Source of the DNA: Adineta ricciae
Lineage: Eukaryota; Rotifera; Eurotatoria; Adinetida; Adinetidae
Length of the DNA stretch: 64,000 nucleotides
Assembly: GCA_905250025.1 (NCBI GenBank)
Contig: CAJNOJ010000223.1
Coordinates: 1-64,000 of the forward strand
Direction: 5' to 3'
In this document: positions 4,858 to 53,324 of the stretch, piece by piece
How the letters are laid out: each line of letters starts with the position of its first letter
Numbering within the stretch: the first letter of the stretch is position 1
Notes under the pieces: generated by a model
What the model was told of the DNA's origin: nothing
Seen by the model: only the letters and a program-made list of their open reading frames with translations
The model's database searches: none
Position numbers and translations under genes: made by a program

Positions 4858-5816
4858 CCTTTTTTTCTCTAATGCCAGTACCTTTTATGGGCTGTGATGA
4901 GATTTTGTTAACGCACGGCTGTAGGAAGAACTTGCGAAGAATGTTTCTCTTAATATAAAATTTGACACGCTTTTGTGATGAAAATGTTGTTCTGTAGCTG
5001 AAAAAGAGCAACAAATTGATGCACTCAAGAATCTTTCCTGAAACGTTATAGTGATAGTGTAAAGAAAAAGAATCGATCGTTAACAGCAACTGTTGACTAA
5101 AGATTATGTGTCCTGTTCTTAGATTAATGAATCAGAAAACAAAATAGTGCCGAGTTTCACTCTCTACAATGAATTAATCATTCCGATAAATTAACTTCCA
5201 TTAAGATGGCGATCTTGGTTATTCTACTGAGTTTAGATTTCAAATTTCGTATGAGTATGGCATACGCTCGTGGAAGATGCGTCTCAACAGAAAAATAGAG
5301 CAAATGAAAAAAATCCTGTTTTATTTCGTCTCTAGTTACAATAAATTTTTCTCTAATAAAAATATCTCTACCAATGTGAAAGTACTTTCATCGAAGAATG
5401 AATACTAAAAGTGCTAAGTCATGCAATATTGCAACAAGAGATAGAATTTTTTTTATCAAAAACTTAATTATAAAAAAATTAACTCATTTCAAATCTGAAT
5501 GACGTATGTCATGTAAACTGAAAGCATAAGTATGCGTGATGAATACAGTATTTGACTTGACATTAATCTGCTTACCTTCTATCAGAGAGAGAGAGAGAGA
5601 GAGAGAGGGGAAAGCACAGCTATAAAGAGTGAAAAGATAAAAAGTTGAAACATTCTGGTACAAATGTCCTTGAGAGAATGTTTTCAACATTCAGCAAGAG
5701 AATTTCACACCAAGCTTGTCCAAAACAGATAATACTGTAGTTTAATGAATATTGATAGTGTTTCATATGATTCAAGCAGAGAAGTGAGGATGAGTAACAA
5801 GTCGATTTACATTTAA
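4858..5816. other. Intergenic with a GA microsatellite
   Basis: No convincing gene. A dinucleotide (GA) run of about 12 units lies at 5584-5607. Short open frames here have low-complexity translations and are not supported. Confidence 0.5.
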
Positions 5817-16516: not shown

Positions 16517-18576
16517 ATGATCGTCAACTATTCTATCTTGCTTTTTATGATTGTCTCCTACATTCGAGGCAAAGAACAAACGGCTGGAAATGACCTCTCT
16601 CGATCGTTGTCAATGGATGAAGCTTATCTAATCATGTACAATAGGAATTCTTCGGAAAATATCACATTATTTGGGAACAAAGTTGTATGTGAAAACTGTA
16701 ATCTTGGGAAAATGTCTATGGTTGCTCCGAATAAGAATCGCACTATAATAATTAACACGCAATACGCATACGATTTAGAAATTCGTTCATCAGAATCCAA
16801 TGAAAGTATACTATGCCAATTTAAACCATACAAATTCCATGAACATGGTACATATGTGTTGCATCTTATGTATAACACACCGCTCGAGACGAAATGTTCA
16901 ATCGAACAGATTGGAAAATTGAGTGCCTATGCAATACCTGCTATTCTTGGTGTTCTATTTGTGATCTTATATACTGCAGTAGTTCAATTCTGGCAATACA
17001 TCGACTATCGTCGAATTTGGAATTATTTTCGCTCGACTGGCACACAAGCTCAAATACTTGTTGAAGATACTGCTCAGGGTAGTCTGAATACAAATCAATC
17101 TGCTGCGTCCAATACGAAATCTCGTGCTACGAAACGCCTGCGCTCTTTGGACACTTTTCGAGGATTTTCGCTGATGGTAATGATCTTCGTGAACTACGGC
17201 GGTACTTTCATTCAATAGTTACAAATACATGCTATATTCGATCGTATTGTTTTAGGTGGTGGTTATTGGTTTTTCGATCATTCAAGTAAGACATGAAATA
17301 TGTCAAAAAATGAAGTTCTTCGTTTTCATTTCGTAGCTTGGAATGGATTGACATTGGCTGATCTGGTTTTTCCTTGGTTTACTTGGATGATGGGCGTCTC
17401 GATTGTCCTTTCCCAACGATCACTTCGCTCGAAGAATGTTCGAAAACGGAGTATGCTCGTGAAAATCTGTCGACGAACGCTAATTCTGATACTTTTGGGT
17501 AAAATCAAGCTTATTTTATATACATTCATGCCCAAGACATGTGTTTTGTAGGGATGAGTGAACAACCTCATTTGATGAAATTCAAAGATCTTCGTTTTTG
17601 TGGTGTTCTTCAACGATTAGCTACATGCTATTTCTTTACAGCAATACTCGTTCTTTGCCTTGATAAAGATTATAAACTAAACAGTCAGGATGAGCATCAA
17701 GAACCATCGTTTCGTATGGAACTCAATCGAGCTGTGTTTCAATATTGGCTCCAATGGTTACTCGTGACATTGGTGGTGATTATTTGGGTCTTGGTAACGT
17801 TTCTCCTTCAAGTGCCCGGCTGTCCGACTGGATATATAGGTCCCGGTGGAAAACATGATCATGGAAAGTATTCAAATTGTACCGGAGGTGTGACAATTTT
17901 CTTGCAAAGATTTTTTGAGAAATGCGCTATTTATAGGAGTTGCAGGATATATCGATCGAGTAGTCTTGGGAAATTCTCATCTGTACGATGAGCCAACTTG
18001 TAAAGAAATCTATTCCACCAAGCTACCTTACGATCCCGAGGGTGAATATGTCGACTTCGTTATGGAAAGATGTTTATGACGATTTTTTCAGGTCTTTTGG
18101 GTAATTTAACTGGAATTCTTCTTTGTTATCTGGGTGTTCAAGCCGGTCATGTTTTTGTTCACTCAAATCGTGTTAATCGAATTTGTTCTCAATGGTTAAT
18201 ATGGGGTATCATTTGTGGTTGTTTTGGTCTAGGTCTATCCTTCGGCGGCCATTCAGATAGCTGGATTCCAATCAACAAAAATCTATGGTCATTAACATTT
18301 GTCTTCACTTTAGCTAGTTTAGCTTTCGTCATTCTCTCTGTGCTTTACGTTCTTGTTGACGTTCGTCAATGGTTCACTGGAGCTCCATTTCTTTGGTTGG
18401 GCATGAATTCCATTGCTATATACATGTGTCACGGCCTATTTGGCGTCAGTGTTCCAGTACAATTCGATGTTAGTGATACCCATGCTGCTCAACTTGCTAT
18501 GCATCTCTATGGAGCATTTTTTTGGTCGTTAGTTGCCGGTTTGATGTACTATAAGAAAGTTTTTATCGCTATTTGA
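16517..18576 (+). CDS. HGSNAT: Heparan-alpha-glucosaminide N-acetyltransferase-like protein (copy A)
   Basis: Six exons (16517-17201, 17256-17285, 17337-17498, 17552-17887, 17937-18041, 18092-18576), all with GT-AG introns of 49-54 bp, give 600 aa. There is a signal peptide, a luminal N-terminal domain with Cys and N-glycosylation sites, a first membrane span (AIPAILGVLFVILYTAVVQF), a cytosolic loop, then RLRSLDTFRG entering a multi-span region. Spliced NYGGGGYWFFDHSTWNGLT carries Asn and His eleven residues apart, matching the two active-site residues known in human HGSNAT. NCTGGVAGYIDRVVLG and YDPEG are further family blocks. The enzyme moves acetyl groups from cytosolic acetyl-CoA across the lysosomal membrane to heparan sulphate ends. 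The duplication boundary cuts inside exon 1 at 16686. Confidence 0.87.
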
Positions 18577-18669
18577 TTCAAGAGGTTTAGCACTCTCAAT
18601 TGGTTTTCATGTTCGTTCACAATGCAATTTTATTCATCAAATAAAAGAAAATATTCCTATCAAACTATA

Positions 18670-19617
18670 TCATCTAGATGTTGCACTTGAGATAAACGAG
18701 GTATACGGTGCTACTCGAGTGAAAACAACATAAGAATCACAAGTTAACAATCCCATATTCACCACCCCGGCACACGTCCATGCATTATTGATTTTCATCA
18801 TTAAAGGACTGCCACTGTCACCATAACATGCAACACTTGTAGTATTACCAGTACATATTTGATTGTCAGTTATTGATGTATAGTTGCAAAGTGATGAGGC
18901 TACCACACGTGTAGTTGTCTGTTGTAAATTGTCGGAGAAATTAGAAGTAGCTGCTGTTCGACCCCATCCGATATAAACAGGTGTATCACCGATTGTAGGT
19001 GCTGCATTATTTGACGGTAAGCAACATAAACCAACTTTTGTACCGGCACTCAATGGAGAGGACAATTTAAGTATTGCCAAATCATTTACTTTTGTGACAT
19101 TGGAGTAATTCGGATGAATAGTGATCGTAGAAATACTCCGTATCTCTCCACTTGACTTTTCTGAAAGCTTCTGAATACCTGCGTATGCAAGAATTGAATC
19201 ACTTGTTACATCATATACACAGTGTGCTGCGGTAAGAATATGTTGATAGGTAATTAATGTACCACCACAGAGTCGACCATTGGTCATGTTAAGTGCAACC
19301 ATCCATGGCCAACTATTTGATGCAGCAGTGTTTCCATTCACAATACGAGAGGATATCGTAGGTTGAACAGACGGACAACCACACGTAGCTTTAGCACTGC
19401 ATGTGGACTGAGCTGAACTTGAACTTGAACTTGAGGTGTGCAAACCTAATCCAAGTCCTACTCCAAGTCCAATGCCGAGAATGACCAATAAGGAACCAAC
19501 CACAATGGTAATTACTGCACAAATGATAAGCAACGTTCGTTTTGTACTTGTAGGAGCAGGCGCTGGAGGCTTAATTCCATAACTTGGTGCACGATAACGC
19601 ATTTTTGTGTACTGCAA
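18670..19617 (-). CDS. Membrane-anchored trypsin-fold serine protease (copy A)
   Basis: A single-exon, 315-aa S1-family protease. A cytosolic basic N-terminus of about 27 residues is followed by a long hydrophobic span (LLIICAVITIVVGSLLVILG), so this is a type II membrane protein. A Ser-rich linker leads to the activation site SSRIVNG. The catalytic triad is present in LTAAHC (His), NDLAIL (Asp) and CYGDSGSPL (Ser); the usual GDSGGP is GDSGSP. The residue six before the catalytic Ser is Val instead of Asp, so trypsin-like Arg/Lys specificity is not expected. Both the activation site and the triad look functional. It is convergent with the HGSNAT-like gene, with about 90 bp between stop codons. 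Confidence 0.85.
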   Translation of the reverse strand: MQYTKMRYRAPSYGIKPPAPAPTSTKRTLLIICAVITIVVGSLLVILGIGLGVGLGLGLHTSSSSSSSAQSTCSAKATCGCPSVQPTISSRIVNGNTAASNSWPWMVALNMTNGRLCGGTLITYQHILTAAHCVYDVTSDSILAYAGIQKLSEKSSGEIRSISTITIHPNYSNVTKVNDLAILKLSSPLSAGTKVGLCCLPSNNAAPTIGDTPVYIGWGRTAATSNFSDNLQQTTTRVVASSLCNYTSITDNQICTGNTTSVACYGDSGSPLMMKINNAWTCAGVVNMGLLTCDSYVVFTRVAPYTSFISSATSR

Positions 19618-20211
19618 ATAAAACGTACATTGAGCTTATCATATACATGTATATATACCGACGTAGATTCGTTGGCGTTTATTGTATCCTTCTATTGGAA
19701 ATAGGAAAAACTCAAAAACATGACACTTACTACTTTTCTTGATTCATGCTGGTTTTGCTCGTGATATAATCGTTTCGATATGTAGTCGATATAAAATGAC
19801 TAATATCATTTCCTTCCTTAGGAAGTGAGAAGTAATGCCCAAGGATGAATGCATATAACTACCGAGTACAATGTGTCATCTCATTAGAGACTCATGTTTC
19901 TAACTATTATTTGTAAAAATCAGCGCTCGGAAGATTGCAATAACATTTAAAAAATCATACGCATTGAGACAGCCACTCATCATTGAAAATATTACCTGTA
20001 GCACATGGTTAATTGAAATATGTAATACCTGGTGCAAATATACTTCCTGCTGACTCATATGCAACACAAGATACGCCTCATTTAGTTCAAGTAGATGTAA
20101 ATATGATAAAATGGTTAATTTTTTCATAGTCATAAAATATCATTATTTTAGTCGTATATAAAAAACAAGTTTTTTTTTGAATAATTTTGGTGAATTGAAG
20201 AATAGGAAAAC
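19618..20211. other. Intergenic, 5' region shared by divergent genes
   Basis: This lies between the starts of the protease gene (minus) and the methyltransferase gene (plus). The part up to about 20010 is also present in copy B; the rest is found only in copy A. No motif could be supported. Confidence 0.4.
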
Positions 20212-21058
20212 ATGGCTCAATATGATAGTTGTGCTGCAGATTATGTTGCTTCCAAGAAAGAAGGCTTTCGAGTTGATGTAGAATATTATACATTTCTTTA
20301 TCGAATGCTTCTACCAACTCTTGGAAAAGAACATCTTACTGCTAAACTTAATGACGTACTTGCAGGAAAACGTGTGCTTGATCTTGCTTGTGGCGATGGA
20401 CATTATACACGTAAGCGAAACTTAATAGAATTTCGAATTTATACTGCATCTTTTTTCAGGTAAACTGAAAGAGCAGCTAGGTGCAAAAGAGATTGCTGGT
20501 GTTGATATCAGTCAAGGAATGATTGATATCGCGCGCGCGAAAGAAGCAGAAAATCCGCTTGGCATTACTTATCAAGTGGCAGATGCACAAGATCTTCCTT
20601 CTCCAGCTGAGAAATATGATATTGTCACTGCATTCTATTTGCTCAATTTTGCTCGAACGAGTGATGAACTGAAACGAATGGTACAGGCTATCGACAAACA
20701 ACTAGCCGACAAACAACCTTTCTTTGCTACGATTACCAACATTTGTGGTGATGCAAGTACATACAATACCGATAGACATCGAAAGTATGCATTTATACGC
20801 GAGGCTGCTTTAGAAAATGGACGATTATCAGATGGTGCGGAAGTTAAATACACACAATTCAACGCAGCAGATGGCACTTCATTTTCGTACATAACATATT
20901 ATCTGTCAAAAGAAACTTATGAACGTGTTTTTAAAGAAGTAGGCTTTACTCATTTTCAATGGGTACCTATGGAAAGTTGTCCAACAGTTGAAGATCGAGC
21001 ATTCTATGATGATTTTATTCAGTATCCGCCTGCTATTGGAATCATCGCCTCGAAATAA
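20212..21058 (+). CDS. Class I SAM-dependent methyltransferase
   Basis: Two exons joined by a 49-bp GT-AG intron (20411-20459) give 265 aa. SAM-binding motif I is VLDLACGDGHYTR (about residues 55-67); the acidic residue at the end of strand 2 is in GVDIS; motif II-like VADAQDLP and motif III-like YDIVTAFYLLNFA follow. This is a small-molecule methyltransferase fold; the substrate cannot be read from sequence. It stands about 1.1 kb upstream of, and on the same strand as, the cyclodipeptide synthase. In bacteria CDPS genes are often clustered with N- or O-methyltransferases that decorate the diketopiperazine, so a tailoring role is a reasonable inference. Copy B keeps only about 130 bp of it. 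Confidence 0.8.
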
Positions 21059-21317: not shown

Positions 21318-21741
21318 TTAGTTAGCCTTTGATGATTGCATAGTGAGAAGCTGTTGAGCTAATTCACCGACAAATTTTCGACCGGGATTTTCTGGTTGGC
21401 CATTGGTACTGATCCATTCATCGGGTGTGAATAAAGCAAAAAGCCCGACTTTGAGAAGAACAGGTACGCATCTTTCCAATTCATAACGAGCTTCGTCCCC
21501 TTCTCGGTTTTCTCCATTGTTGAACCGTTCAATATTTTTCAGCATTGCAGCTACAGTGCCAGTCTGCACTGTACTTCCGTCCTTGAGTTGAACAGCTGGT
21601 AACGAAGCACCTTCAGCAACGTTCAATATACGGCAGTATGTCGATGCTACGTCATTTGTTCTTTCTTCACCTAAAATACCAATACCAAACGACAGTCTGA
21701 TTGATTAACATCGACGTTTTCCTACCTTTGTGTTCAGCCAT
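21318..21741 (-). CDS. Small bacterial-type protein of unknown function (DUF7709-like?)
   Basis: Start ATG at 21741 (MAEHKG), a 55-bp GT-AG intron (21671-21725), then a second exon to 21318: 122 aa in all. Conserved-looking blocks are GASLPAVQLKDGSTVQTGTV, a Leu-rich helix (VPVLLKVGLFALFTPDEW) and NPGRKFVGELA. This pattern (GA-LP-V-L-DG--VQTGTVA-ML-N, then VP-L-KVGLF-LF-P-EW) matches, from memory, a bacterial family of unknown function, possibly DUF7709. It sits inside the methyltransferase-CDPS-P450 group but on the opposite strand. It may be unrelated to the pathway or an accessory protein. It is absent from copy B. Confidence 0.65.
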
Positions 21742-22214: not shown

Positions 22215-23208
22215 ATGGAACACATCTGTATTCAAACGTGGCAAACTTCCACAATTGAAGAACAATGTGATGATCATGATTTCGTCGTTGTGGCCATTAG
22301 TCCATCACAATTTCGCTCATTGTTATCATCAACTCCAAGAAGCATTAGTTTTGCTCGTCATATTCTCGATTATGCTTTAAGCAAATTTTCTTCATCGCAA
22401 AAACTCGTCGTCCTCATCGCCGATCAAATACAGAAATACAACGTAGCTGTATTCGAACACAAAAACGAAGAATGTTCACTAAAAACAGCTACATCACTCG
22501 GTCAAAAGATTTCAAGTTTCTTTTTTCAAGTTCTGGAACAAATCTCGCCGAATGATCGTCAAAGGATTCAAATTATCAATTGGACCGATATGCTCACGTC
22601 CAGCAACTATGACGCTCGTGTAGAAGACATCCGAGTGTACACAAACAATCATCCGGAGCAATGCTTGCCATTGATTGATAAGGTTAGAATACATCCATTC
22701 TTAACATTGAACGCTAATTAGTATTGATTATTTGTAGGTCTGTCAAGAATATGCCAGAGCACGGTCTCCGAAAAAAGTGCTGAAAACGAAGGAAGTCGTT
22801 ATGTTGCGCGAGTATGTCATCGCCGAACTACCTGCTTTACTCAATGGTATTGAATACAGCGGCGATACTTATCGATTTATGCTGCATCCAGTTCTGAAAA
22901 CGGATAATTCCAATGGAAATGATCAACGAGAGGCTATGGTTGCCCTACTTGATCATATGCGGAAAGATTATTTCACACATGCTACAATTACAATGTCCAT
23001 GTGTCGTATATTCGACGTCGAAATTCCACGTTCATCGATTGTCGACAATGATGAAGAATTGAGCGATTCATCGCAATCGTCATCTGTATCATCAGCATCA
23101 GAACCTATCGCCGATACTAGTAGGCCAACTTTGCAAGAAACAGCGCTCGACACTGATGGTAATTTGGATTATCTGTGGCTCTGTATTTTCATTCAAGTAG
23201 GTGGATAG
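22215..23208 (+). CDS. tRNA-dependent cyclodipeptide synthase (CDPS), probably fused to the downstream P450
   Basis: CDPSs take two aminoacyl-tRNAs and make a cyclic dipeptide on a Rossmann-like fold resembling class I tRNA synthetases. The start at 22215 (MEHIC) is preferred to 22200. A 55-bp intron (22684-22738) joins CLPLIDK to VCQEYARA. Strand 1 is VVVAISPSQF; its Ser29 aligns with the nucleophile Ser37 of AlbC. LREYVIAELPALLNG carries Tyr182 and Glu186, matching AlbC Tyr178 and Glu182, and closely resembles the bacterial YvmC motif. AlbC position 40 aligns with Gln32; positions 202-203 align with His206-Pro207, closer to the XYP than the NYH subfamily. After about residue 235 there is a Ser/Asp/Glu-rich linker and a hydrophobic end (LDYLWLCIFIQ), absent from stand-alone enzymes. 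Without splicing it stops at 23208; with the intron 23197-23257 it continues into the P450. Confidence 0.8.
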
Positions 23209-23257
23209 CATCATATCATTTGTAATGATCTCTGTTCTTTTTTCATAATCGATTTAG

Positions 23258-24871
23258 TTATCAATGCTTATTATTCGACACTTTTGGTTGCCGATCTTAT
23301 CTGCCTGTGTTTTCGCGTACGGACTCTATTATATCTATATATCATTTCTTGAGAAAGTATCTAAACATGGTGAATGGCCTTCGACTACAGCTGACAATTC
23401 CAAAGGAGCAGTTGGTACAAAGTATCAAACATTATTTGGTGATTTACCAGCTATACAGTCAAGTCAGAATGGACGTTTTCTGAATGATTTACACACGGAT
23501 TTAGGCTGCCCTCAAGCGTATCGTATTTACATGGGTCCGGAGCCAGCACTCATGTTGGCCCATTATCATGCTGTGAAAGATTTCTGGAGTCAACAAAATG
23601 AGAAATGTGTTGAACGAGATGTACATCTCGGTTGGCCACTTCAGATGCTCATGGGTAGTGGAGTTGGATTTCGTTCTATAGCAGATCGTAATCGAATAAC
23701 AAAATTTTTTCATCAATGCTTCGGTCCAAGTCAACTTCGACGATTCGATCTACATCTTGAATCACTGACAACTGATTTCCTCCGTTCCTATACTTCTGAA
23801 CAGATGCAATACCAAAATTTAAGATACTTCGCGCATGATGCTGCAGTTCATCTATTCCTCGGTGATGTTGGCTTTAATCACCTAGATGAACTTCATAGTC
23901 TTGTTGATGAACTTGCCGACTTGATGAACGAAGTATTTGACGGCAAATGGACGAACATACCTGTCATAGGATACTATCTTCTGCCTAATTCCTATTCGTT
24001 AAGAAAACGTATTCGTGCGTTCAATTCCACCACTCGTAATCTTCTTAAAAAAGTAATAGCTTTTCACAAGAAAACAAACAAGATGTTTGATTTTTGTCTT
24101 CATAGATTATCAATACCTATCGACAAACTTCATCAGTTGATGAACATGATACTGACACGAATATTTCTCTTCTAAAGTATTATGCACATGATTCAGATCC
24201 AACAATTACGTTTGATGAACTGACAGATACGATTATTGAGGGTTTACTTGCGCCTAATGATGGTACAGCTGGAACATTTATGTACACATTACTGTTGCTT
24301 GCAATGCATCCGGATATTCAAGAAAAAGCTCGAGAGGAAATTCGAAGTTTATCAGGTTTGTATCTTTGAACGTTATGTCATCATCATTATTATTACTCGT
24401 TTAGACTTGACATCACAATCGCTGAGTACAACAACATATTTGGATCAAATACTCAGTGAATGCCAACGCATATGTCCGATATTTATGTTCAACGTACCAG
24501 AATTTACTAGTGCACCGATGACAATCAGTGGAATACAAGTACCAAAGAACACAATGATTATGCTCGATGTCGTTTCTCTCAATCATAGCTCAGATATATG
24601 GTCTGAGCCGTTGAGATTTCGACCGGAACGATTCGATGTATCTAATGCACCTGTTCCACTCAAAGCTTATCACGGTTTTGGCAATGGACATAGTCGACGA
24701 TGTCTAGGACAGCATCTTGTCAAAAATTTACATCGACTATTTCTTGCTCATCTGCTAAATGAAAAGCAAATTCAATTAGTTAACAAGATAGAAAGTATAA
24801 ACGACATGAAGAGATGTCGGTTGCCGTTTATTTATATTCCAGCAGAAGCAGTAAGGCTCGTTCAAATCTAA
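23258..24871 (+). CDS. Cytochrome P450, in frame with the CDPS
   Basis: Exons 23258-24052, 24106-24355 and 24405-24871 (introns of 53 and 49 bp, GT-AG). Read alone from ATG 23264 it is 501 aa, a normal P450 length. It begins with a hydrophobic anchor (LPILSACVFAYGLYYIYISF). The I-helix region reads GLLAPNDGTAGTF, K-helix ExxR is ECQR, the PERF-type motif is FRPERF, and the heme loop is FGNGHSRRCLG with the cysteine ligand. The exon start at 23258 follows an AG acceptor and is exactly in frame with the CDPS exon ending at 23196. P450s commonly oxidise cyclodipeptides in bacterial CDPS clusters, so the cyclodipeptide is the expected substrate by inference. Copy B retains only the last codons. 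Confidence 0.88.
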
Positions 24872-25000: not shown

Positions 25001-25002
25001 GG

Positions 25003-25036
<34 letters not shown>
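25001..25036 (+). repeat. Telomere-like hexamer array (GGGTGA)6
   Basis: Six uninterrupted GGGTGA units, followed by GGGTGTG, lie 130 bp after the P450 stop. The G-rich hexamer resembles the reported bdelloid telomere repeat TGTGGG but is not identical. Copy B has about two units at 48329-48342. Confidence 0.8.
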
Positions 25037-26153: not shown

Positions 26154-27455
26154 GACTATCCGATGTTTTATAATTAATTAGAAATCTGAAATCATTATTC
26201 AAAATCAAACTTTAGAAACACGTGTATAATCCAGAACTATTGAACAGTGACAAAAAAATAAAGTTCCTATTCTGGTTACCTTTGCATCTTGCTTCTAAAC
26301 AAACTTCTGTCACCTATGGTCTACGTTCTTTATCTTTCTCCTTATATTCTCGCGTACTTATATCTGATTAGCGACTTTCAAAAGAAACAACACATCTATT
26401 TCAGTTGTTTCATCTTTGCACTTGATATATAGAGGTACCCGCATGTAGTGACAACGGCATTTTATTATACAGCATGGTAGAGCGAAAAAAAAGCGATTTT
26501 CTTGTTCTGTCATGTGATTCTACTTCATGCATCATTGTGATGAGAAACTTTTAACAAGACTAGTTTGCCTAAGATGTGTCACGACGATAGAATTACAAAT
26601 TGTTTTGAATAGACGTTATATCAACATATCTGAATATTGAAAACATCCAAGTAATCGTTCCGATCACCTACACACAACTCCATTTTTTAAATTTATTTAT
26701 CGAACATTTTGTTTCGTATTCTTCTTCATTGAGAGCCATACAAGTTACGTTTGACACTGAGATAGAGTGGGATGAAACATTCAAGTCTTGCCTTATTCGA
26801 TGGAACAAAACGAGTTTGCTATTCCATCCCCTGGAAGGATTTTTTTATCTTTTACTCATCACATATAAACCTCTACGTATTGTTATCATCACGATTTTGA
26901 TATAGTTGTTGATTACAATTAGAAAGCTTTTGCTAACTAAAACTTAATGATGGTTTAACCAATGATATCAATCGGAAGGTGGTTGGCTAAGTATGATCTA
27001 CAATTCTTCGATTGAACAGTATCATTCCAGTTCTCTAGCTGGACTACTGCAAAACTATTTCCCGGAATTGGAAAATTTCCTCCACGAACAATGTCAAAAG
27101 GCATTTGTGAAAGCATTTCCTAATAATCGAAATCATTCTCCTGCAAAGATTCATTAGTACACAGATTCATCCATTCAAGATGATATCTATCCAGTTGTAT
27201 CGACCGGAGAGAAGCCTATTTGGCGTCCTTGATAAATTAAATGTTAAATTACACATCTTCTATTTACCTTTTAGTTTTTCTTTCAAGATGAAAAGCAAAG
27301 AAATGCGCCATCTCGTCATTTTTCTTTTTCTACAGATATAAAAGAAAAATAAATGTTCTGAGTTCCATAGAAACAGGCTATGCTTTGTCTTGTACGCTTC
27401 GCCTCGTTCATTCTTCATAATAGTCGAGTATTTTGAAGGAAATTCTTACAATAAA
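26154..27455. other. Intergenic with a conserved coding-like fragment
   Basis: Most of this holds nothing recognisable. At 26992-27236 (plus) a frame reads SSLAGLLQNYFPELENFLHE, then HSPAKIH, a TAG, and SSIQDDIYPVVSTGEKPIW. The same fragment is in copy B at 50402-50632, where its frame is shifted near the start but the stop is absent. It is a decayed exon or gene remnant of unknown family upstream of the transporter gene. Confidence 0.4.
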
Positions 27456-29778
27456 ATGATTGTTTCTCCACATTCATCTCAATCTAGAAAATCATTAGCA
27501 ATCTTTGCCGTTTTAACTCTATTGCAAATATTGACGGGTGTTCTGTACAAAATATCTCCACAAATCAAGCAAGGAAGTCAATCATTTGCAGCGATAGTGT
27601 TTTACGCTGAAGTTTTGAAATTGTTCATCAGTACTGTCATTATTTACATAACTGCTGATAGTCAAATTTCAGGTGAGGCATTCGACGTTCATCGTTGTGT
27701 TTTCTTTCGAAAAATTTCGACGATTTCAACGAAATTCTGCGAACAAGTCACATGGAGATTTCTGCTGTACTCCGCTGGAATAGCGTCTCTTTATTGTTGT
27801 AATAATTCTCTATTGATTTCTTCAAGCAATTCAATGGATTCTACCATCTCGACTCTGGCTACCAGCGTTTCAATTCCGTTCACCTTACTGATCTTATCGG
27901 GATTGTGTGATCGATGTATAAATCATTTCGATTGGATTGCATTGTCTCTCCAACTAATTGGCTTAGGAATTTCTCAATATAATGGATGCCAACAAAGTTC
28001 TTCTCAATTGGATTATATTATATTGATTACTATGGCAATATTAACAGCGGTTTCTCGTGTTGGGAATGAGTATTGCGTTAAGTATTTAAACATTGATTTA
28101 CAGGTGCAAAATTTAGTTTTATATTCGCTGAATGTCATGTTTCACTTCGTTTTGTTCTATAAATCATTGGCAGTACTAAATTATTCATGGTGGATGATGG
28201 CGATGAGTGTATGTTATTCATTGATTGGCCTGATTGTTTCAGCTGTTTACAAATACAGTGACATATTCATGCAACTTTGGTCGTTTTCGTGCGCAACAGT
28301 AGTGTTAATTCTGTGCAATTCATTGCTTTTCGGAAGTGTGGTTGACGCACATATATATGCGGGTGTTCTGATCGTACTTCTGGGATTTTATCTATTCATT
28401 CTCCAAAGGGATGACTTTGCTGCTGTACCGATCGAGAGAACAGTGACGAATGACGAAGAAGCAACTCGTTCGAGTTCAGTGAAGATAATTTTATTGATTT
28501 TATTCACAATAATTGGATACTTTACTCTTCTATCTACACGAACAACTATCCGACCCATCCCATTCAGAAACTCAAATACAACAGAATCCTTACATACAAC
28601 TACTGTTATCACAAAACAACAAGTTACCAGTATGTTGATCATATTTCGATCCACTAAATTTATTTTCTTTTCTCATTTCACATTCAGACAGTTTTTTTCA
28701 AATTACCAGAATTGATCCTATCCGACTTAATCGGCCTCTTAAAATACATGGTATCTTCAATGTCAAGGACGCCGAGCTTCAACTTACTGTAAACGCAATC
28801 AAATGCTCTTTATATTATTTCTCAAACAATGAAACTATCTGCAATGCACCTGATTTAATCGATAAACTACCACGGAATGCCACAGTCGAAATTACAGTCA
28901 AAGCACGATATGGAAGTTCGTCAATCGAACAGAAGATTACCGTCGCTCGGTGGATGACACATTGGGAACGCGAACATATTTTACTTTTGATATGCTTCGG
29001 ACAAGCGCGATACGAACGGATAGCATTTTTGAGTATGTTTGAAGATTTATTCCCAAAAGTTATTTACGCTGGGCCCACTGCAGGTGAAAATATCGTCCTT
29101 TGCCCCGAATTGCCCTGGCGAAATCATGTGTGCATGTCCAGGGTTATCGAACAATATCCGAATTATAATGGTTATTTGTACCAAACTTTCGACACGGGGG
29201 TTATTCTCTTCAATCTTTTTTCTTTTGATCTGTTAAAAATTTGGAGAGCAAAAGATTATCGTTCACGCGATCCGCCATTTGGTTCTCCGGTGCATGAAGG
29301 AAGTGCAGCAGGGTGGATGTGGAATGTTCATCCAGTATTAGCCGACACGAAAAAAGCATTTGCAATAATCAATAGCGAAAGCCAAAAGAATACATCAGAT
29401 GGCCAACGATATCGGAGATATATGAAAAACTTAGTAACTAATGCCGGTGCGGCTGATATGCGACTTGGCTCATTCAGTGATCTTTATTACATACCGAAAC
29501 ACCTGACGAACGATTGGTTGTTTCTAGCCGGGCGAGGGGGTGTGTTTGATAAGTGTAACGTTATACACGAGATCGTATCTCCAACGATTTCATGGATGAT
29601 TACTGATAAAATTACAACGAAATATCAAACATTCGAAGGTTCATATTCCACTGATGCGAGTATTCAAGAATATCTCCGGAATCCTCATCATCATTATTTT
29701 CATCGAGTCAATTTAACAGACAAAAACGAACGAGATTTTGTTAAAACGATCAAAGAAAAGTCACATGTGTATGTATAG
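27456..29778 (+). CDS. Nucleotide-sugar transporter fused to a putative glycosyltransferase domain (copy A)
   Basis: Two exons (27456-28629, 28688-29778; 58-bp GT-AG intron) give 754 aa. Residues 10-320 form about ten membrane spans with the SLC35A pattern: YKISPQIKQGSQSFAAIVFYAEVLK near TM2, SALQ-type LSLQLIGLGISQ, VQNLVLYSLNV, and YKYSDIFMQLWSFSCATVV. After a final span and a Thr/Asn-rich stretch comes a soluble domain of about 330 residues, containing ARWMTHWEREHILLLICFGQ, HVCMSRVIEQYPNYNGYLYQ, a following Asp/Thr site, and several His and Trp residues. The layout (hydrophobic strand, GYL-, acidic loop) resembles glycosyltransferase-like luminal domains; this is not certain. A transporter that carries its own transferase would supply the sugar donor in the Golgi lumen. 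The upstream in-frame start at 27390 is less likely, as copy B begins at the equivalent of 27456. Confidence 0.75.
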
Positions 29779-29811
29779 GAAGAGTTTTTCTTTTCAATAA
29801 AGATAAAAGTA

Positions 29812-32800
29812 TTAACAAGTTTGAACGTAAATGCTTAAGCTATCAGTGCCTTGATTTGCTACAGCAAAGTCGACTTTCCCATCCTGGCCGAAATTACCGG
29901 TTACAACCGAGAATGGATGCGAGCCATATGACATCGAATATGGCATCATATTATCGAATGTTCCATCACCTCGACCAAGAAATACTCCGAATTTATTATT
30001 GTCATAGCTGACAATAATGATATCAAGATTTGCATCATGATTGAAGTAATCAACAGCTAACGAAGAGGGATTCGATGATGGACCAGTTGAATATGTTGTC
30101 TGATTCGAAGAGAACGAACCATTTCCGTCGCCAAAAAATATACCAATCGTGTTCGAGAGAGAATTAACAGTAACTACATCGAAGTGTCCATCATGATTGA
30201 AGTCACCAGTCGCAATAGCGTTTGGAGATGACGATGGACCAGTCGAATAGGTTATTTGATTTGCAAACGAGAAATTACCATAGCCAAGAAACACACCAAT
30301 ATGATTATAATCTGCGTTAGCAATGATTATATCGTCGTAGGTATCATGATTAAAATCCTCAATAACGAATGATGGTGGCTGTGAAGTATTTCCAATTGAT
30401 AGTTCTGTTTCTATAATGAAAATAAGATCGGGTTGACCAAACCAGACAGTGACGGTGTTGTCACCAGAGTTCGCCACCACAATGTCAAGTTTAGCATCTT
30501 TGTTTAAATCACTAGCAGCGATAGATATTGGAGCAGAACCTGTTTGCTGTGTAAGTTGAGGGATAAATTCTCCATCACCATATCCTAGGAGAATACCGAG
30601 AGAATTGCTGCCAAGATTCGCGACAACTATATCTGAATATCCGTCATTATTAAAATCACCAATGACGACAGATTGTGGAAGAATGCCCACTGAATATCGT
30701 ATTACATTTCGGAAGGATGCATTTCCATTTCCCAGCAAAATCGACACTGAACGATAGCCTACAGTAGTTGCAACAATATCGAGTCGACCGTCATTATTTA
30801 GATCTCCTACTGCTAATGAGACTGGACCCACGTCTACCGAATACGTAACTTGCGGCATAAATGATCCATTTCCATAACCTAGAAAGATTCCCACGTTATT
30901 GACAGCATAGTTAGCAACAGCGATATCCAATCGAGTATCGTTGTTGAAATCAGTTATATGTATGTCGGACGGATAAGAAGAATTTAAATAAATAATTTGA
31001 GATGTAAATGATCCGTCACCATTGCCTCGTAGGACAACGAGTAATTTACTATCTGATCCAATAACTATGTCGAGGTTTGTATCATTGTCCAAGTCGCCCA
31101 CTGCTGCAGTTCTTGAATTGTAGCCAATTGTAATGGCTTTCGGATCTTCAAAGAATCCATTACCCAATCCTAGATATAGAATAATGTCGTTAGTACCACC
31201 ACTGGTAACAACTAGGTCCAGTCGATCGTCGTTATTGAAGTCGCCAACAACGACAGACAATGCAAGGCTTTTAACCGAATAGGTTGACGAATACCGAAAG
31301 CTACCGTTTCCCGTTCCTAAGAAGACACTGAGCGTATCAGAATCATAATTAACAACCATCATATCAGCATAAGAATCGTAATTTATGTCTTCTAGAACTA
31401 CGCATCGTGGACGTAAGTCGACTGCGTACGTCTGTGGATTCACGAACGAGCCAGAATTGAATATAGTTAATATATTAATAACATCACTGTAAGCATATCC
31501 AGCAACAATTTCCGATTGTTCATCATTGTTAAAATCTCCAGCGGAAATAACGGCCGGAGGAGATTCAGAAGGAGTCTGATAGGTATTTTGACGGCTGAAA
31601 GATCCTCGATCATCTCCAAGTAAAATTCCAACTTGATGAAAACCAGAAAGGGCTACTGCAATATCTAATTGGGAATCGTTATTGAAATATCCAACAGCGA
31701 CTGATGCCGGCGCAGAATTCAATTCCATTGTAATCGTAAGTCGATTGCGAAAAGTTGTATTATCAGATCCAAACAGAATTGAAATATCATCAGTACCATA
31801 GTTCGCAACAATCATGTCTAATCGGCTATCATTATTTAGATCACAAGTAATCATCGATTGTAGTTTAGAACCACCACCAGATGCGTATTTCAAGTCATCA
31901 ACAAGAGCACCTGTGCTTGGTTGAACTAATACAGCTATATAAGTACTATAAGAGTTTGTTACAACCAAGTCCAATCGTTTATCATTGTTTAGATCTGCAA
32001 CTGCTACACTATACGATAGTGAATTGGTGTAATATGACACTGCAGTATCGAACGAGCCATTACCATGCCCATATACAGTGTATAAATTCGGCACATTAGC
32101 GCAACCGACAATAAGATCCAACCATGTGTCATTATTAATGTCATCGATAACTACCCATGCTGGAAAAGTACCCACTCCATATGTAACTTGCGTTACAAAG
32201 GTACCGTTCGTACTTCCTAACAGAACGCTCACAGTACTGCTTACAGAGTTGGCCACAACAATATCCACTCGGCCATCATTGTTCAAATCTGCGACTGTTA
32301 CAAAGTAGGGATTCGTGCCTGTTCGGTATACTGTTGGATTTCCAAAACTTCCATTATTATAGCCGAAAAGAATGGTCATACTTCTGTTATTGAAATTGGC
32401 AAGTACTAAATCAGCTTGATTATCATTATTAAAATCGCTAGTAGCTACACAAATCGGTTTACTACCACTTGAATATCTCGTTTCATTTGTAAATCTACCG
32501 TTACCATATCCCAAGAAAACGCTGACACTGTTATTGCCAAAATTAGCAACAACAATGTCCAATCGATCGTCATTATTGAAATCGCCAAGGGCTACAAATG
32601 CTGGTTCAGAACCAGTTGAATAGTTCGATGGAGTTCCTAGGGTGCCATCGTCATTACCAAGATATACACAAATATTATGACTATTACGATTGGCAACAAC
32701 TATATCTATGTTTGTATCGTTATTAAAATCACCTATGGCTAACGAATATGGATTGCTACTCGTTGAATAAAATGTTGGACTTTGGAATGATCCATTGCCG

Positions 32801-34335
32801 TATCCAAGGGAAATCATCATCATATTACTTGCACGAGAGAGCACTATCATATCTAGTATTCCGTCATGATTCAAATCATTGACAGCTACAGTCGTCGAAT
32901 TGTACTTAACATCGTGCGTTGCGTATGATGGAAAGCCTGCAAAATATCCTTTGAGAAGTTCAATACTTCCAGTGTCATTACTAACGACGATTGCATCCAA
33001 CCGATTATCTTTATTATAATCACATAAAACAAACGAGATGGACGAAGTAGATCCAGTTGTGTTCATCATTGCATTGGAAAAACTGCCATCGCCCAAACCC
33101 AGAAGTAAAGCAGTGTCGTTCAGTCCGATATTAACAGTAAATATATCCAATCGACCGTCACCATTGAGATCTCCGACGCCGATCGAGTATGGCGAAGAAG
33201 AATCGATCGAATACGATGTTCGCTCCAAAAAGTTTCCATGTTCATCATTTAAAAGTACATAGATCATATTCGTACCATAGTTACTAACAGCAATATCAAC
33301 AAATCCATCCGAATTGAAATCTGCAACAGCAACTGACGATGGATGAGAATTGACACCGGTTGAGATTATCAATGTTTCTTGAATCGTATTACTACTATTA
33401 AAAAACACTAAATGTATCTCGTTCGTTCCAAAATTTGCAATAATAATATCTAAGCGATTGTCATTATTTAGATCTCCTGTAGTCAATGCGTATGGAAACG
33501 AATCATATCCAGTTGAATAAGTAAATAGATTGACAAAACTTCCCTTTCTATCCCCATAGAATATACTAATACTGTTCGTTCCGTGATTAATAACAATAAT
33601 ATCAACAAATGAATCCTTATTGAAATCAACTAGATGAAGTGATAGTGGTCGTGAAATTCCTGTTGATATTTCGATTTGATCTTGAAACGATCCATTACCG
33701 AATCCATAGAAGATTCCAATAGTATGACGGTTATAATTTGCGACTGCAATATCTAAATATGAGTCATTATTGAGATTATCGACTGCAGCCATCATCGGAT
33801 TGGAATTGATGCCAGTTGAATACTCGTATTCCTTGACAAAGTTTCCATTCGAATTTCCAAAATAAACTCCGATTCGACTAACAATCGAATTGACAATGAC
33901 CATATCGATCCAAGTATCCAGATTAAAGTCCCCGATGGCAACGGATACTGGTCCATAATTATATTCAATGGGATTTGTTTCCGTTCGCACGAAATTTAAT
34001 CCGCATGTCGATACTAAAACAGAACGTCATTTCGAATTCCGATACATGGATAATCTACCTTTCGGTTTTGGTGCGTTTAAGCAAACGATGATAATTCCAA
34101 TAGCCATCATGATACAAATAGATGTAGAAGATATAAAAATACGAACAGTTCCACTTCGTGTTGCATAAACAGAACGTTTTCTGAAACATAAAATACTTAT
34201 AAAATCTTAGATCAAACAAACGAAAATGTACAATTCTTGCAGAGGTTTCAGGATATTTAATCGATTATCTTGCTTCGTTTTATAGAGAATCTTTGCTAAT
34301 GGTGCACTAGAAGATAACTTTGAATTGTCATCCAT
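29812..34335 (-). CDS. Giant FG-GAP/VCBS-repeat membrane protein (copy A)
   Basis: Exons on the minus strand: 34335-34232 (possible start), 34180-34059, 34013-29812, with introns of 51 and 45 bp, give about 1475 aa. A short cytosolic N-terminus and one membrane span (CIMMAIGIIIVCL) are followed by 28 repeats of about 48 residues. Each repeat carries a calcium-loop core of the type DLNNDGRLDIVVAN and ends in LLGYGNGSF, with many N-glycosylation sites. This is a beta-propeller array like the FG-GAP heads of integrin alpha chains, and points to an extracellular adhesion or binding role. The first ATG present in copy B (57914) is AGG here, so translation would have to start at a later Met (for example 34335). 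It is convergent with the transporter fusion gene, 33 bp between stops. Confidence 0.82.
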
Positions 34336-34390
34336 GAGAATGTCAGCAGCAGTCACGTGTTCATCCAAACCAACGTGTCGATCAACAGTA

Positions 34391-35074
34391 TCTATTTCCC
34401 TCTAAATTTAACGGACTAATAGACCTAACACAGTCGCATAATGAATAGCGTTTCATACTTGACTCATAGTGTATGGTTCGATAAATAAAGATAAATAAGA
34501 GTAGGAAGGAAAAGCAACGTTCTTTTTCGTCGGCTATGTATAGGAATAAATGTTCTGTGTGAATAATTCGACTCCACCTATGGAATGATAATAAGGTAGA
34601 TGAAAAATAAGTATACATATTGACAGATTCATTTTGTGTATTAGCTGTCGATGACACGTGCACATTTCACCTTTTTTTCATTTGAATAAGAGGCCAGAGA
34701 AAGCACAAGCAGAACAGCGATTTGGGCGTGTTTTTTTATTAATTGGAATTCAGCATGTGACTGTCTTCTGTGTTACAAGAGAACAAGATAAAGAAGAATT
34801 TCTGTCATTAAATTTCCATCACGTCTCGAGTGTGATCACTAGTCAGCAAATAACTTTCAAACGTTATGTATGCACTCATTTTTTCCCAAAACTCAAATGA
34901 TATTTTATGACATATTTCCTTTTCAATCATATCGATACGCTCTCCATCGAAATAGCGTACATCTATGTTATACATCAATATACACGGTTGTTTTTTTCCA
35001 TTTAGAGATAGAAATCATGAACATGTAAATAGTTCTGTTCTTTACAGCTGTTTGAGCAACATCGGAACTGGTGT
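34391..35074. other. Intergenic
   Basis: Probable promoter region for the FG-GAP gene; no motif could be supported. The equivalent region in copy B is shorter (57915-58556). Confidence 0.4.
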
Positions 35075-36066
35075 TTAATACAGACCACCAAAGAACGTGA
35101 ATTCACATTCCCAGACTTGATTTGTTTTCCAAGGATTGATCATAAGGAGGAGTTGATTAGTTGCCAATGGGTTGTTTGCAATATTAAATAAGATGGGAGA
35201 CAATGTGTGGTAATATGTACCGTTGTTAATCGCTGGATAGGAAAATGATTGGCCCAAGTACATGTAAATCGTTTTCGGGTCATGCCATGCATCATCGTAG
35301 ATTGTCAACTGAAAAGAGCTCAATAAATATTTATCATTGAACGTGATACAAAGATAGTCAGGTAAGAGGTAACTATGAGGATTCCAAATAGTATAAATGT
35401 CGTTGTCGAAAGCGCGCCACCATTCATCTCCGGTTGTATTTAGTTCGATGCCTAGATTAGAGAATTGTGCTTGTGAAGTTCCACCGATAACAGGTATTCG
35501 AACAACTGACATGGCTATAGAAAAAGAAAGAGTCTTTCAGCAATTTCGATAAGCTTATAACGTACGTGTATATGTCTTATTTTCTCGTGAACAAACCAGA
35601 CCCAGGTCATTGCGACATTGTCTACTACTGTTACATGGTGCCCCTGTGAAAGATTGTGATTGGCATGTTTTGTTAGTCCAATAAGTATGTACTGGACATT
35701 GACATGTATCGTTTCGGCAAACCAAATATCGATCTTGAGCACAATAATCACAGGATTGATTATATTTCGGAGTTAAATCAATGTTATCATAAAGATAATC
35801 GAGCCAACTACGGTAATATTTTATGCTGAACTAACAAAAGAACCAGCTTGAGGAGAACTTTCGTAAAGTCGACAACATGATAAGTCAAAAACAAACGTGC
35901 GACATCGTGCATCTTTATGGCATAACATTGGACATTGTACAAGTTCGATCGGATTAGTCGGAGTATGATTAACCCCAGTGTCATATACATAGATGTGTGA
36001 CATAAAATCAGTCGATATGATGTTCATATTTAGTAGAAACAAAACGCAGCTGCAATACGTTATCAT
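35075..36066 (-). pseudogene. PAN/EB/discoidin-like secreted protein, broken copy A
   Basis: The order of domains equals copy B (58557-59598): signal peptide (MITYCSCVLFLLN), PAN-like Cys-rich domain, Cys-rich EB-like module, and a C-terminal discoidin (F5/8 type C-like) domain starting at MSVVRIPVIGG. Compared with copy B, a Ser codon has become TAA shortly after GSFVSS (about 35822-35824), two bases are inserted near 35790, and nine codons are missing in each of the first and last domains. The middle Cys-rich module is therefore out of frame. The last exon remains open, so decay appears recent. Confidence 0.75.
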
Positions 36067-36267
36067 TACACCGCGAGATGATCGAACGCACTAAAAAATC
36101 TTTGTTCGTAATGAAAATATCCACATATCGTCGCGATATCCTCCTTTCTATAGAGTAACAGCGGAAAGAATCAAATCATAAGTGTATTCAAGACGTTAAA
36201 ACAATTTTCTGTAGAGAGTCTGCTTGAATGTCGATCTTTACTAAAGTATCATTAAACAAAGAAACCG

Positions 36268-36534
36268 TTAGCGTGACAACTCTAAATCATTAACATTATT
36301 CGCGCTGAGTAACACCAAAGAGAAATAAAAAGTTTCGAACGCCGGTATTAATGCCGCTGACAACAGACCAGCAGGTACTACTTCCGACAACAAGACTGTT
36401 AAACCGAGCTGATGAAGTGTTTGCATGTTCGACTTTTCACCCGAACTAACATCAAGAGCAGGACTGAAATCAATACATATTAACGATGCACTGACACTGA
36501 TTGAACCGTTGCAGTTATCCTTAAAACACACCAT
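36268..36534 (-). pseudogene. Remnant of a secreted-type gene of unknown family (copy A, truncated)
   Basis: An open frame with SSGEKSNMQ and LLSEVVPAGLLSA matches the 5' part of the longer remnant at 60400-60945 in copy B. About 0.8-0.9 kb present in copy B between 59950 and 60755 is absent here at about 36330, removing the downstream coding-like part. No family recognised. Confidence 0.4.
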
Positions 36535-37414
36535 CTAAGTATTGTCGCCAATAACGCCTCTTGAGGATATACTTGAACTATCGCAGAAGCAGTCAGGATA
36601 ACTTCGACGCCATATGGTCAACGATGACGTTCTTGGATATTATCGGATGGACGTCTATAGAATCTCGAGATTGTTAGGAAGAAGAAAGAAAATTTTCTAT
36701 TAGCTCACCAGACGATTGATCCGCCACGGAAATATGTTGTATCGATGATCAATACTTATAGATAAAGGACTGATGAGAAAGCTGGTGAACATCATTTCTG
36801 AACGTTATTTCACGTATGAAACAGTAGAGTGTTATAACAAGCCTTTATATGGAAGATTTGCAAGTGAGAAGACATCGAAAGTATTAAACAGTATCTAGAG
36901 TAAATATTATTGTTTAACTGTAGAATGCATTTGTCTGTTGAAAAAAAAATCGAAGGTCTGATTTCACCTATGCAATTCGCTCTTTGTTTGCAACTATTTT
37001 GTGCATTGAATTTTGACTGAGAAATACACCCACTGTTCGCTATTTGTTATTTTAAAAACTATCGAATAGCATATACTTCTCAATCCACACATTGAACTTG
37101 TAGAACAAGAAAAAAAACGAGTGTCAAATTGATCAGTTGCTGTGGTCCTACAGGACCGAAAGTGATGCTTCAGTCTCAAAACTTTTGAAATGTGTTAGCA
37201 ACCGATCGCGGCTCGTCTTTTATGTTTCTCATCAAAAATATATTTCAGTTGTGTCGAGTTGCAGGTTGTGCAATCCTTCACTCCTCCTTTTCTCTGTTAC
37301 ACAATTTATTTTGAGGATGGTGCAATTCGATTCATTCGTGGGTCACTCTAAGAGACTCGAAATGGTTTATTATTGAGAGAGATTTTTCAGAGAAAGAAAT
37401 AAATGGGAATCTGT
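36535..37414. other. Intergenic
   Basis: Further coding-like fragments of the same remnant may reach about 36660 (compare copy B). Otherwise nothing supported. Confidence 0.35.
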
Positions 37415-46379: not shown

Positions 46380-46470
46380 TTCAAGAAGTTTAGCACTCTC
46401 AATTCATTTTCACGTTCGTTCACAATGCAGTTTAATTATCAAATAAAAAAAATATTCCTATCAAACTATG

Positions 46471-47986: not shown

Positions 47987-47989
47987 AGT

Positions 47990-53291: not shown

Positions 53292-53324
53292 GAAGAGGTA
53301 TTCTTTTCAATAAAAATAAAAGTA

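What the first reader, a model, noticed from the sequence alone, without database searches (positions are those of the whole stretch)
22215..23208. A cyclodipeptide synthase encoded in an animal genome
Spliced sequence gives VVVAISP with the nucleophile Ser, and LREYVIAELPALL with the Tyr and Glu that hold and activate the aminoacyl group in bacterial CDPSs. The gene carries a 55-bp spliceosomal intron and lies among animal genes on both sides, so it is not bacterial contamination. CDPSs are mostly bacterial and only a few animal examples are known to me. Subfamily-marking positions (Gln, His-Pro) are closer to the XYP than the NYH type.
Basis: partly seen in the sequence, partly recalled or inferred. 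Interest (0 to 1): 0.92.

Follow-up and report, generated by a model that had tools for sequence, protein, structure and literature searches.

The report
Animal cyclodipeptide synthase fused to P450
A tiny freshwater animal, a bdelloid rotifer, carries a gene for a dipeptide-ring-making enzyme of a mostly bacterial kind, and the gene appears to run on into an oxidising enzyme (a cytochrome P450), so that one membrane-anchored protein may both build and decorate a small molecule.

Summary
In detail: 22215-23196 encodes a cyclodipeptide synthase (CDPS) domain with a 55-bp intron. The stop at 23206-23208 lies in a second, phase-0 intron (23197-23257); the gene continues to 24871 as an anchored cytochrome P450 (812 aa). 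The host is Adineta ricciae; public databases name the same 812-aa model only "Cytochrome P450". A 58%-identical paralogue has all four introns at the same positions and phases, and dN/dS of about 0.12-0.13 in both domains, with dS near saturation. A third locus has CDPS and P450 as separate neighbouring genes. CDPS membership rests on profile search (11 of 11 PDB hits are CDPSs, best FoCDPS, E 7e-19) and fold search; Pfam and NCBIfam scores stay below their cut-offs. Ser29, Asp70, Tyr182 and Glu186 are kept, but the ring-closing tyrosine (AlbC Tyr202) is His206, as in FoCDPS (by its name a fungal enzyme; organism not shown). CDPS-P450 fusion is known in Streptomyces; an animal, anchored one with His here did not turn up in ten searches of an open-access library. 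New variant of a known kind; transcript and product untested.

The parts
22215..22682 (+). Exon 1, CDPS N-terminal half (residues 1-156; Ser29 at 22299-22301, Asp70 at 22422-22424)
   Evidence: spliced product equals public protein P0012
22683..22737 (+). Intron 1, 55 bp, GT-AG, phase 0; same place in C381
22738..23196 (+). Exon 2, CDPS C-terminal half (Tyr182 22813-22815, Glu186 22825-22827, His206-Pro207 22885-22890), Ser/Thr-rich linker, start of the hydrophobic anchor
23197..23257 (+).
   Evidence: spliced product equals P0012
23173..23350 (+). Hydrophobic anchor encoded across intron 2 (residues about 302-340)
   Evidence: Hydropathy, peak 1.8, just over the 1.6 threshold used; one long helix 297-346 in the model
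23258..24052 (+). Exon 3, rest of the anchor and first half of the P450
24053..24105 (+). Intron 3, 53 bp, phase 0
24106..24355 (+). Exon 4, P450 I-helix region (LLAPNDGTAG from residue 621)
24356..24404 (+). Intron 4, 49 bp, phase 1
24405..24871 (+). Exon 5, P450 ExxR (SECQR), PERF and haem motif FGNGHSRRCLG (Cys757 at 24701-24703), stop
   Evidence: Pfam p450 E 1.8e-47 on the whole protein
20212..21058 (+). Neighbour: SAM-dependent, UbiE-like methyltransferase, two exons; same order and strand next to the C381 copy; a possible tailoring partner
   Evidence: best NCBIfam match MenG/UbiE E 1.7e-16, under its cut-off
21321..21704 (-). Neighbour: DUF7709 protein; same order and strand in C381
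   Evidence: Pfam E 2.6e-31

Best explanation
The gene encodes one 812-residue protein: an N-terminal CDPS, a Ser/Thr-rich linker, a hydrophobic anchor, and a cytochrome P450. Shown by sequence: the gene structure, its conservation in a paralogue, family membership of both halves, and the retained catalytic Ser, Asp, Tyr and Glu. Inferred: the CDPS takes two aminoacyl-tRNAs in the cytosol, loads the first aminoacyl group on Ser29, adds the second, and closes the ring with His206 standing in for the usual tyrosine proton relay. The product goes to the P450 on the same chain at the membrane face, which oxidises it with electrons from a reductase. Both domains should then be cytosolic, so the anchor would enter and leave on the same side (hairpin or in-plane) rather than cross once. 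The product would be a modified diketopiperazine, perhaps for defence.
For: CDPS: bdelloid profile A4 against all PDB sequences at E<=1 gives 11 hits, all CDPSs, best FoCDPS E 7.4e-19 and the Parcubacteria CDPS 2e-13; TIGR04539 E 5e-5, 4e-5 and 2.6e-5 for the three A. ricciae copies, each 23-24 bits under a cut-off of 45. AlphaFold2 block pLDDT 80-98 over residues 1-260; all 50 PDB chains matched at E<=0.001 are CDPSs, and all 36 for the C43 copy. Catalytic letters: Ser and Asp in 33 of 33 rows that reach them, Tyr/Glu and His-Pro in 14 of 14. Fusion: all four introns, intron 2 among them, at the same alignment column and phase in both fused copies; in C381 the P450 exon has no ATG at its start; the two environmental pieces holding exon 2 (P0010, P0011) share LW-x-IL-x-x-Q (LWLCIFIQ in the window) and then end in unlike tails; both 812-aa models are in public annotation. 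Selection: dN/dS about 0.12 (CDPS) and 0.13 (P450). P450: E 1.8e-47, haem Cys, ExxR, PERF. CDPS and P450 lie side by side at C43 too. UbiE-type methyltransferases next to CDPSs are described in actinomycetes (PMC2922099, section 5), like the neighbour here.
Against: No RNA or product evidence was available. dS is near saturation, so the ratios are rough. At C43 the two are separate genes (stop 5424-5426, next ATG 5560 of L007; P0020 is annotated alone), so linkage need not mean covalent fusion. AlbC Y202F stalls at the dipeptidyl-enzyme (PMC5935735, passages), so His206 might block ring closure; two attempts with fungal CDPSs in E. coli gave no product (PMC5816076, sections 10 and 14). The P450 lacks the usual I-helix Thr (APNDG for AGxET). 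The whole-protein model is poor (mean pLDDT 61, pTM 0.45, P450 half about 45), and shows the anchor as one long helix, not a hairpin. Hydropathy of the anchor is only just over threshold in the window copy. Pfam CDPS and TIGR04539 scores are under their cut-offs.
Confidence: 0.66

Rival explanations
1. The locus makes two separate proteins, a CDPS that ends at 23208 and a P450 translated from its own (spliced-leader trans-spliced or alternatively spliced) mRNA, as an operon-like pair.
For: Locus C43 is such a pair, 133 nt apart, with TTTTTAG just before the P450 ATG; in the window an ATG follows 6 nt after the acceptor. Spliced-leader trans-splicing in rotifers is recalled, not looked up.
Against: In C381 no ATG follows the acceptor, and the first later Met lies inside the anchor; position and phase are conserved; the reading after the donor is unlike between rows; public annotation joins them.
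Confidence: 0.15
2. A CDPS-fold enzyme that no longer makes cyclodipeptides: with His at the ring-closing position it releases a linear dipeptide, transfers the dipeptidyl group elsewhere, or is a non-catalytic tRNA-binding part.
For: His-Pro replaces Tyr-Pro in 14 of 14 bdelloid rows and in FoCDPS; Tyr202 is described as strictly conserved in active CDPSs (PMC5935735, passages); fungal CDPSs gave nothing in E. coli in two attempts (PMC5816076, section 14).
Against: Ser, Asp, Tyr and Glu are kept and the protein is under purifying selection; CDPS beside or fused to a P450 is a known CDPS context (PMC2922099 section 5, PMC5816076 section 14); His can relay protons (general knowledge).
Confidence: 0.27
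3. Bacterial contamination, assembly chimera, or a decayed relic.
For: A near-duplicate of the neighbourhood further along the window lacks the gene, so the region is unstable or the assembly has placed two haplotypes in line.
Against: Introns, animal-type neighbours, two intact paralogues, no frame break, relatives in A. vaga, A. steineri and Rotaria.
Confidence: 0.02

Closest known systems
FoCDPS (PDB 31ee/31eg)
   Same: Best sequence match of the bdelloid profile (E 7.4e-19); Asp of its ICDEI, Tyr and Glu of YTLAE, and His-Pro in place of Tyr-Pro
   Different: Chain of 271 residues, no P450 in it. That it is the Fusarium oxysporum enzyme is my reading of the name; no call shows the organism, and a plasmid search with its printed stretch found nothing. 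0 papers with the word FoCDPS
CDPS 71 of Streptomyces roseochromogenes (NYH CDPS fused to a C-terminal P450)
   Same: CDPS first, P450 second, one chain; its isolated CDPS part makes cWY (PMC5816076, sections 10 and 14)
   Different: NYH subfamily, about 240+410 aa, no anchor mentioned; the bdelloid one is not NYH, 812 aa, with a hydrophobic anchor, in an animal
CDPSs of Nematostella (Nvec-CDPS2), Platynereis and other marine animals
   Same: CDPS in animals; the Platynereis gene is induced in the antibacterial response (PMC2922099, section 5)
   Different: Eukaryotic NYH sequences come from coral, anemones and marine worms (PMC5816076 section 14); those of the 2010 survey were stand-alone (PMC2922099 section 5)
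ParcuCDPS (XYP, PDB 7QB8 series)
   Same: Second-best profile match; Ser26/Asp58/Tyr167/Glu171 correspond to Ser29/Asp70/Tyr182/Glu186 (PMC7613923, passages; Ser by position)
   Different: Has Tyr191-Pro where the bdelloid has His206-Pro; bacterial, 230-residue chain
Bdelloid NRPS/PKS clusters induced by a fungal pathogen (PMC11258130, abstract and passages)
   Same: Biosynthetic genes of non-animal type in the same species, proposed for defence
   Different: NRPS/PKS; the words cyclodipeptide, diketopiperazine and cyclic dipeptide occur 0 times in the main text

Membership tests
Cyclodipeptide synthase (CDPS) | Sequence-profile homology to CDPSs | tested here: met
   11 of 11 PDB hits are CDPSs, E down to 7e-19. 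Library models match only weakly, under their cut-offs: PF16715 E 9e-4, TIGR04539 E 2.6e-5 to 5e-5
Cyclodipeptide synthase (CDPS) | HUP/Rossmann fold of the CDPS type | tested here: met
   all chains matched at E<=0.001 (36 and 50, many from the same enzymes) are CDPSs; TM-score by target up to 0.76; next come tyrosyl/tryptophanyl-tRNA synthetases
Cyclodipeptide synthase (CDPS) | Nucleophilic Ser and Tyr/Glu of the pocket (AlbC S37, Y178, E182) | tested here: met
   S29 by its place right after strand 24-28, Y182 and E186 by alignment. Geometry in the model could not be measured
Cyclodipeptide synthase (CDPS) | Ring-closing Tyr (AlbC Y202) | tested here: not met
   His206; His in 14 of 14 bdelloid rows and in FoCDPS. 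Membership is of fold and family, with one catalytic letter changed
Cyclodipeptide synthase (CDPS) | Makes cyclic dipeptides from aminoacyl-tRNAs | not testable with these tools
   Needs an enzyme assay
NYH subfamily | N40, Y202, H203 | tested here: not met
   Gln32, His206, Pro207; AlbC, Rv2275 and YvmC are not among the 11 hits at E<=1; the subfamily of hits 6y4b and 9gun was not checked
XYP subfamily | X40, Y202, P203 | tested here: not met
   Pro met, Tyr not; the Parcubacteria and Fluoribacter enzymes among the hits are XYP (PMC7613923, passages). No CDPS tree was built
Cytochrome P450 | FxxGxRxCxG-type haem loop, ExxR, PERF | tested here: met
   FGNGHSRRCLG, SECQR, FRPERF; Pfam E 1.8e-47, over the cut-off
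Cytochrome P450 | I-helix (A/G)GxxT | tested here: not met
   APNDG(T/V) or APLDGV: acid kept, Thr aligned to Gly in 3 of 3 copies; that other P450s also lack it is recalled

The most novel reading that the evidence does not exclude
Bdelloids and, if FoCDPS is what its name says, fungi share a third CDPS type (X-His-Pro) that closes the ring, or releases its dipeptide, through a histidine. In bdelloids it was welded by an intron to a membrane-anchored P450 without the usual oxygen-activating threonine, giving a single-protein pathway to a new class of oxidised dipeptide, an animal antibiotic made from aminoacyl-tRNA.
Probability: 0.27. Interest if true: 0.88.

Novelty: new variant of a known kind. 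Interest (0 to 1): 0.72.

Why it matters
The animal CDPSs named in the papers read are few, NYH-type where typed, and stand-alone where described (PMC5816076 section 14, PMC2922099 section 5). This adds an animal group (rotifers), a different part of the family, a joining with the tailoring enzyme, and a natural replacement of the residue thought indispensable for ring closure. Two questions become testable: whether Tyr202 is really needed, and whether animals make oxidised diketopiperazines. Because the CDPS half scores under the Pfam cut-off, public annotation calls the whole protein "Cytochrome P450", so similar genes may be overlooked elsewhere.

Tried and rejected
Prokaryotic source of the CDPS: a genome-contig scan with A2 used two peptide patterns and gave 47 pattern matches, none confirmed; plasmid tblastn with P0024 gave none; the protein search with A2, which only reaches sequences sharing exact 5-residue words, gave bdelloid rows and unnamed environmental rows. 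These do not exclude a prokaryotic donor; the donor is not identified, and nearness to FoCDPS is the only hint. No CDPS tree was built.

Origin of the P450: a genome-contig scan with A5 used two patterns special to this clade and gave 47 pattern matches, none confirmed. An 11-row tree puts the three CDPS-linked P450s on one long branch (100/100), far from six plasmid P450s (five bacterial, one archaeal) and two other A. ricciae P450s; only 8 of the 16 scored loci were long enough to keep. PDB ranks CYP3A5 (84 bits) and CYP120 (77 bits) close together. Unresolved.

PF16715 against the whole genome rang nowhere, the 14 controls included, so it says nothing. Structural re-alignment (pdb_via) was not available. 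Papers: the ten search listings are (open-access library; long lists were shown in part); no listed paper ties rotifers to CDPSs as far as titles and abstract starts show (one search listed one drug-resistance review that holds both words once each; not opened). Trichoderma "cyclodipeptide synthases" are counted among NRPSs there and not used.

Full report
Observation. The two motifs, the 55-bp intron and the reading frame reported at 22215-23208 are present. The spliced protein is identical to P0012, an unnamed 812-aa product of Adineta ricciae on a contig of 172,133 bases, the length of the window's own contig C223. A. ricciae is a bdelloid rotifer. Of ten neighbouring ORFs scanned (38 of 150 aa or more are in the window), seven had Pfam matches: NHL repeats, aminotransferase, two 7-TM receptors (one at 27.4 bits under its cut-off of 30.5), trypsin, nucleotide-sugar transporter (under cut-off), FG-GAP repeats.

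The gene is longer than reported. The stop at 23206-23208 lies at bases 10-12 of an intron of 61 bp (23197-23257, GTAGGT...GATTTAG, phase 0). Splicing it joins the CDPS to a hydrophobic anchor and a complete P450 (exons 23258-24052, 24106-24355, 24405-24871). Pfam gives P450 at E 1.8e-47 on the whole protein, with FGNGHSRRCLG, SECQR and FRPERF.

Is the fusion real? Contig C381 of the same genome carries a second copy (P0013, 812 aa, 58% identical) whose four introns fall in the same alignment columns and phases: columns 162, 316, 582 (phase 0) and 665 (phase 1). At the CDPS/P450 junction C381 has GTAAAT...GATTTAG, and its P450 exon begins without an ATG. The two environmental pieces that hold exon 2 (P0010, P0011) have LW-x-IL-x-x-Q before the supposed donor (LWLCIFIQ in the window, LWLTLIML in C381) and then end in unlike tails; their DNA was not seen. 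Both 812-aa models are in public databases, named cytochrome P450. Against: no transcript reads were available, and the third locus (C43, L007) has a CDPS with its own stop (5424-5426) and a separate P450 ORF with ATG at 5560; its CDPS is annotated alone as P0020. The C43 CDPS is 34-35% identical to the fused copies, which are 57-58% identical to each other; the P450s 45-46% and 63%. So CDPS-P450 linkage is older than the split of the two types, whichever way the fusion or split went.

Constraint. Between the two fused copies dN/dS is about 0.12 over residues 1-258 and 0.13 over 346-812, with codon-position differences 0.34/0.18/0.52 and 0.28/0.18/0.52; the linker (259-305) is looser, dN 0.74 over 44 codons. 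dS of about 2 or more is near saturation, so only the direction is safe.

Is it a CDPS? Library models are weak: Pfam 19.4 bits for the piece and 16.8 for the whole protein, cut-off 27; P0013 shows no Pfam CDPS match at E<=0.01; 10 of 26 relatives match at E<=0.1, several of the rest being half-length. TIGR04539 matches the three copies at E 2.6e-5 to 5e-5, 23-24 bits under a cut-off of 45. A profile of 26 bdelloid rows against all PDB sequences returns 11 distinct sequences at E<=1, all CDPSs: FoCDPS E 7.4e-19, seven ParcuCDPS variants E 2e-13 to 3e-11, three others about 2e-5; a 10-row profile of mostly N-terminal halves also gave 11 hits at E<=10, all CDPSs. AlphaFold2 of the window protein gives block pLDDT 80-98 for residues 1-260, while the whole model is poor (mean 61.2, pTM 0.45); the C43 CDPS has mean 81.1, pTM 0.79. 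Foldseek at E<=0.001 gives 50 of 50 and 36 of 36 CDPS chains.

Catalytic residues. Of 35 protein rows (the genome's own three included), 33 hold the N-terminal half: Ser in 33, Asp in 33. Fourteen hold the C-terminal half: Tyr and Glu in 14, His-Pro in 14. In ParcuCDPS the active-site residues are S26, D58, Y167, E171 and Y191 (PMC7613923, passages). In AlbC, Y202 is described as strictly conserved and as the proton relay of ring closure, and Y202F piles up the dipeptidyl-enzyme (PMC5935735, passages). The bdelloid has His206 there, and so has FoCDPS (IFHPVY in the alignment). That FoCDPS is the Fusarium oxysporum enzyme is my reading of its name; no call shows the organism. Fusarium-type fungi do have CDPSs (Gibberella zeae, PMC2922099 section 5; Fusarium fujikuroi, PMC5816076 section 10), and that survey places fungal CDPSs in XYP and reports two unsuccessful attempts in E. 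coli (section 14). The gene is thus a CDPS by descent and fold with one catalytic letter changed, outside the strict definition of both named subfamilies.

The P450. The I-helix reads APNDGT, APNDGT and APLDGV where CYP3A has AGYETT: acid kept, Thr aligned to Gly. The three CDPS-linked P450s form one clade (100/100) on a long branch in an 11-row tree. Probable remnants of this P450 lie on C288, C237 and C90, with no CDPS match at E<=1 within the 9-9.5 kb fetched around each. The hydrophobic anchor covers about residues 302-340 in P0012 (peak 19-residue hydropathy 1.8) and 296-345 in P0013 (2.4); the C43 P450 has a 46-residue hydrophobic stretch near its N-terminus. Since the CDPS needs cytosolic aminoacyl-tRNA and microsomal P450s face the cytosol (general knowledge), a hairpin or in-plane anchor is the simplest topology; this is inference, and the model shows one long helix.

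Neighbourhood. Methyltransferase (20212-21058), DUF7709 (21321-21704, minus) and CDPS-P450 recur in that order and orientation on C381. Of 70 window ORFs of 90 aa or more compared with the whole 86.8-kb contig, the other matches are a trypsin (two window copies) in another position and an NHL-repeat gene with an ORF antisense to it. The methyltransferase search of the genome listed no match on C43. Its best NCBIfam models are of the UbiE kind, and UbiE-type methyltransferases beside CDPSs are described in actinomycetes (PMC2922099 section 5). A three-gene cluster is possible but not shown.

Mechanism and standing. Most likely: the CDPS loads Ser29 from one aminoacyl-tRNA, extends from a second, cyclises with His206 in place of Tyr, and hands the diketopiperazine to the tethered P450; a methyltransferase may follow. 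Shown are gene model, family, fold and constraint; transcript, activity, product, topology and role are inferred. CDPS-P450 fusion is known from Streptomyces (CDPS 71, PMC5816076 section 14) and CDPSs from a few other animals, described as stand-alone in the 2010 survey (PMC2922099 section 5). The bdelloid biosynthesis paper does not hold the words for CDPS or its products in its main text. Hence a new variant of a known kind.

Noticed in passing
window 16686-39559 and 44486-64000: The window holds a near-copy of itself (95.4% for 16686-20007 = 44486-47808; 91% for 27298-36245 = 50813-59776; 91% for 36335-39559 = 60742-64000), either a tandem duplication or two haplotypes placed in line.
   Followed up: partly
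window 47988-48220: In the second copy most of the methyltransferase, DUF7709 and the CDPS-P450 are missing: an inner piece of the methyltransferase is joined to the last bases of the P450 near a TATATAT run, which looks like a deletion of the whole cluster.
   Followed up: yes
L034 4432-5073, L035 4457-5078, L036 4229-5230 (C288, C237, C90): Three probable remnants of the CDPS-linked P450 clade, 40-59% identical by piece, with in-frame stops or frame changes (intron read-through may explain some), and no CDPS match nearby.
   Followed up: partly
G000 C257:135446-135934 and C499:37926-38408 (L019, L020): P450s in open frames of 1042 aa that group with a Sphingomonas plasmid P450 in a CDS of similar length (100/97), perhaps P450-reductase fusions of bacterial origin.
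   Followed up: no
window 21321-21704: A DUF7709 protein sits between methyltransferase and CDPS in both cluster copies; its function is unknown to me.
   Followed up: no
window 25002-25031: Five tandem GGTGAG units just downstream of the P450, telomere-like in look.
   Followed up: no
P0022, P0024, P0026, P0032, P0035: Rotaria sordida has both a piece like the first exon of the fused type (P0022) and stand-alone CDPSs (P0024, P0032); stand-alone-type rows also in Rotaria sp. Silwood2 and, cut short, Adineta steineri.
   Followed up: partly
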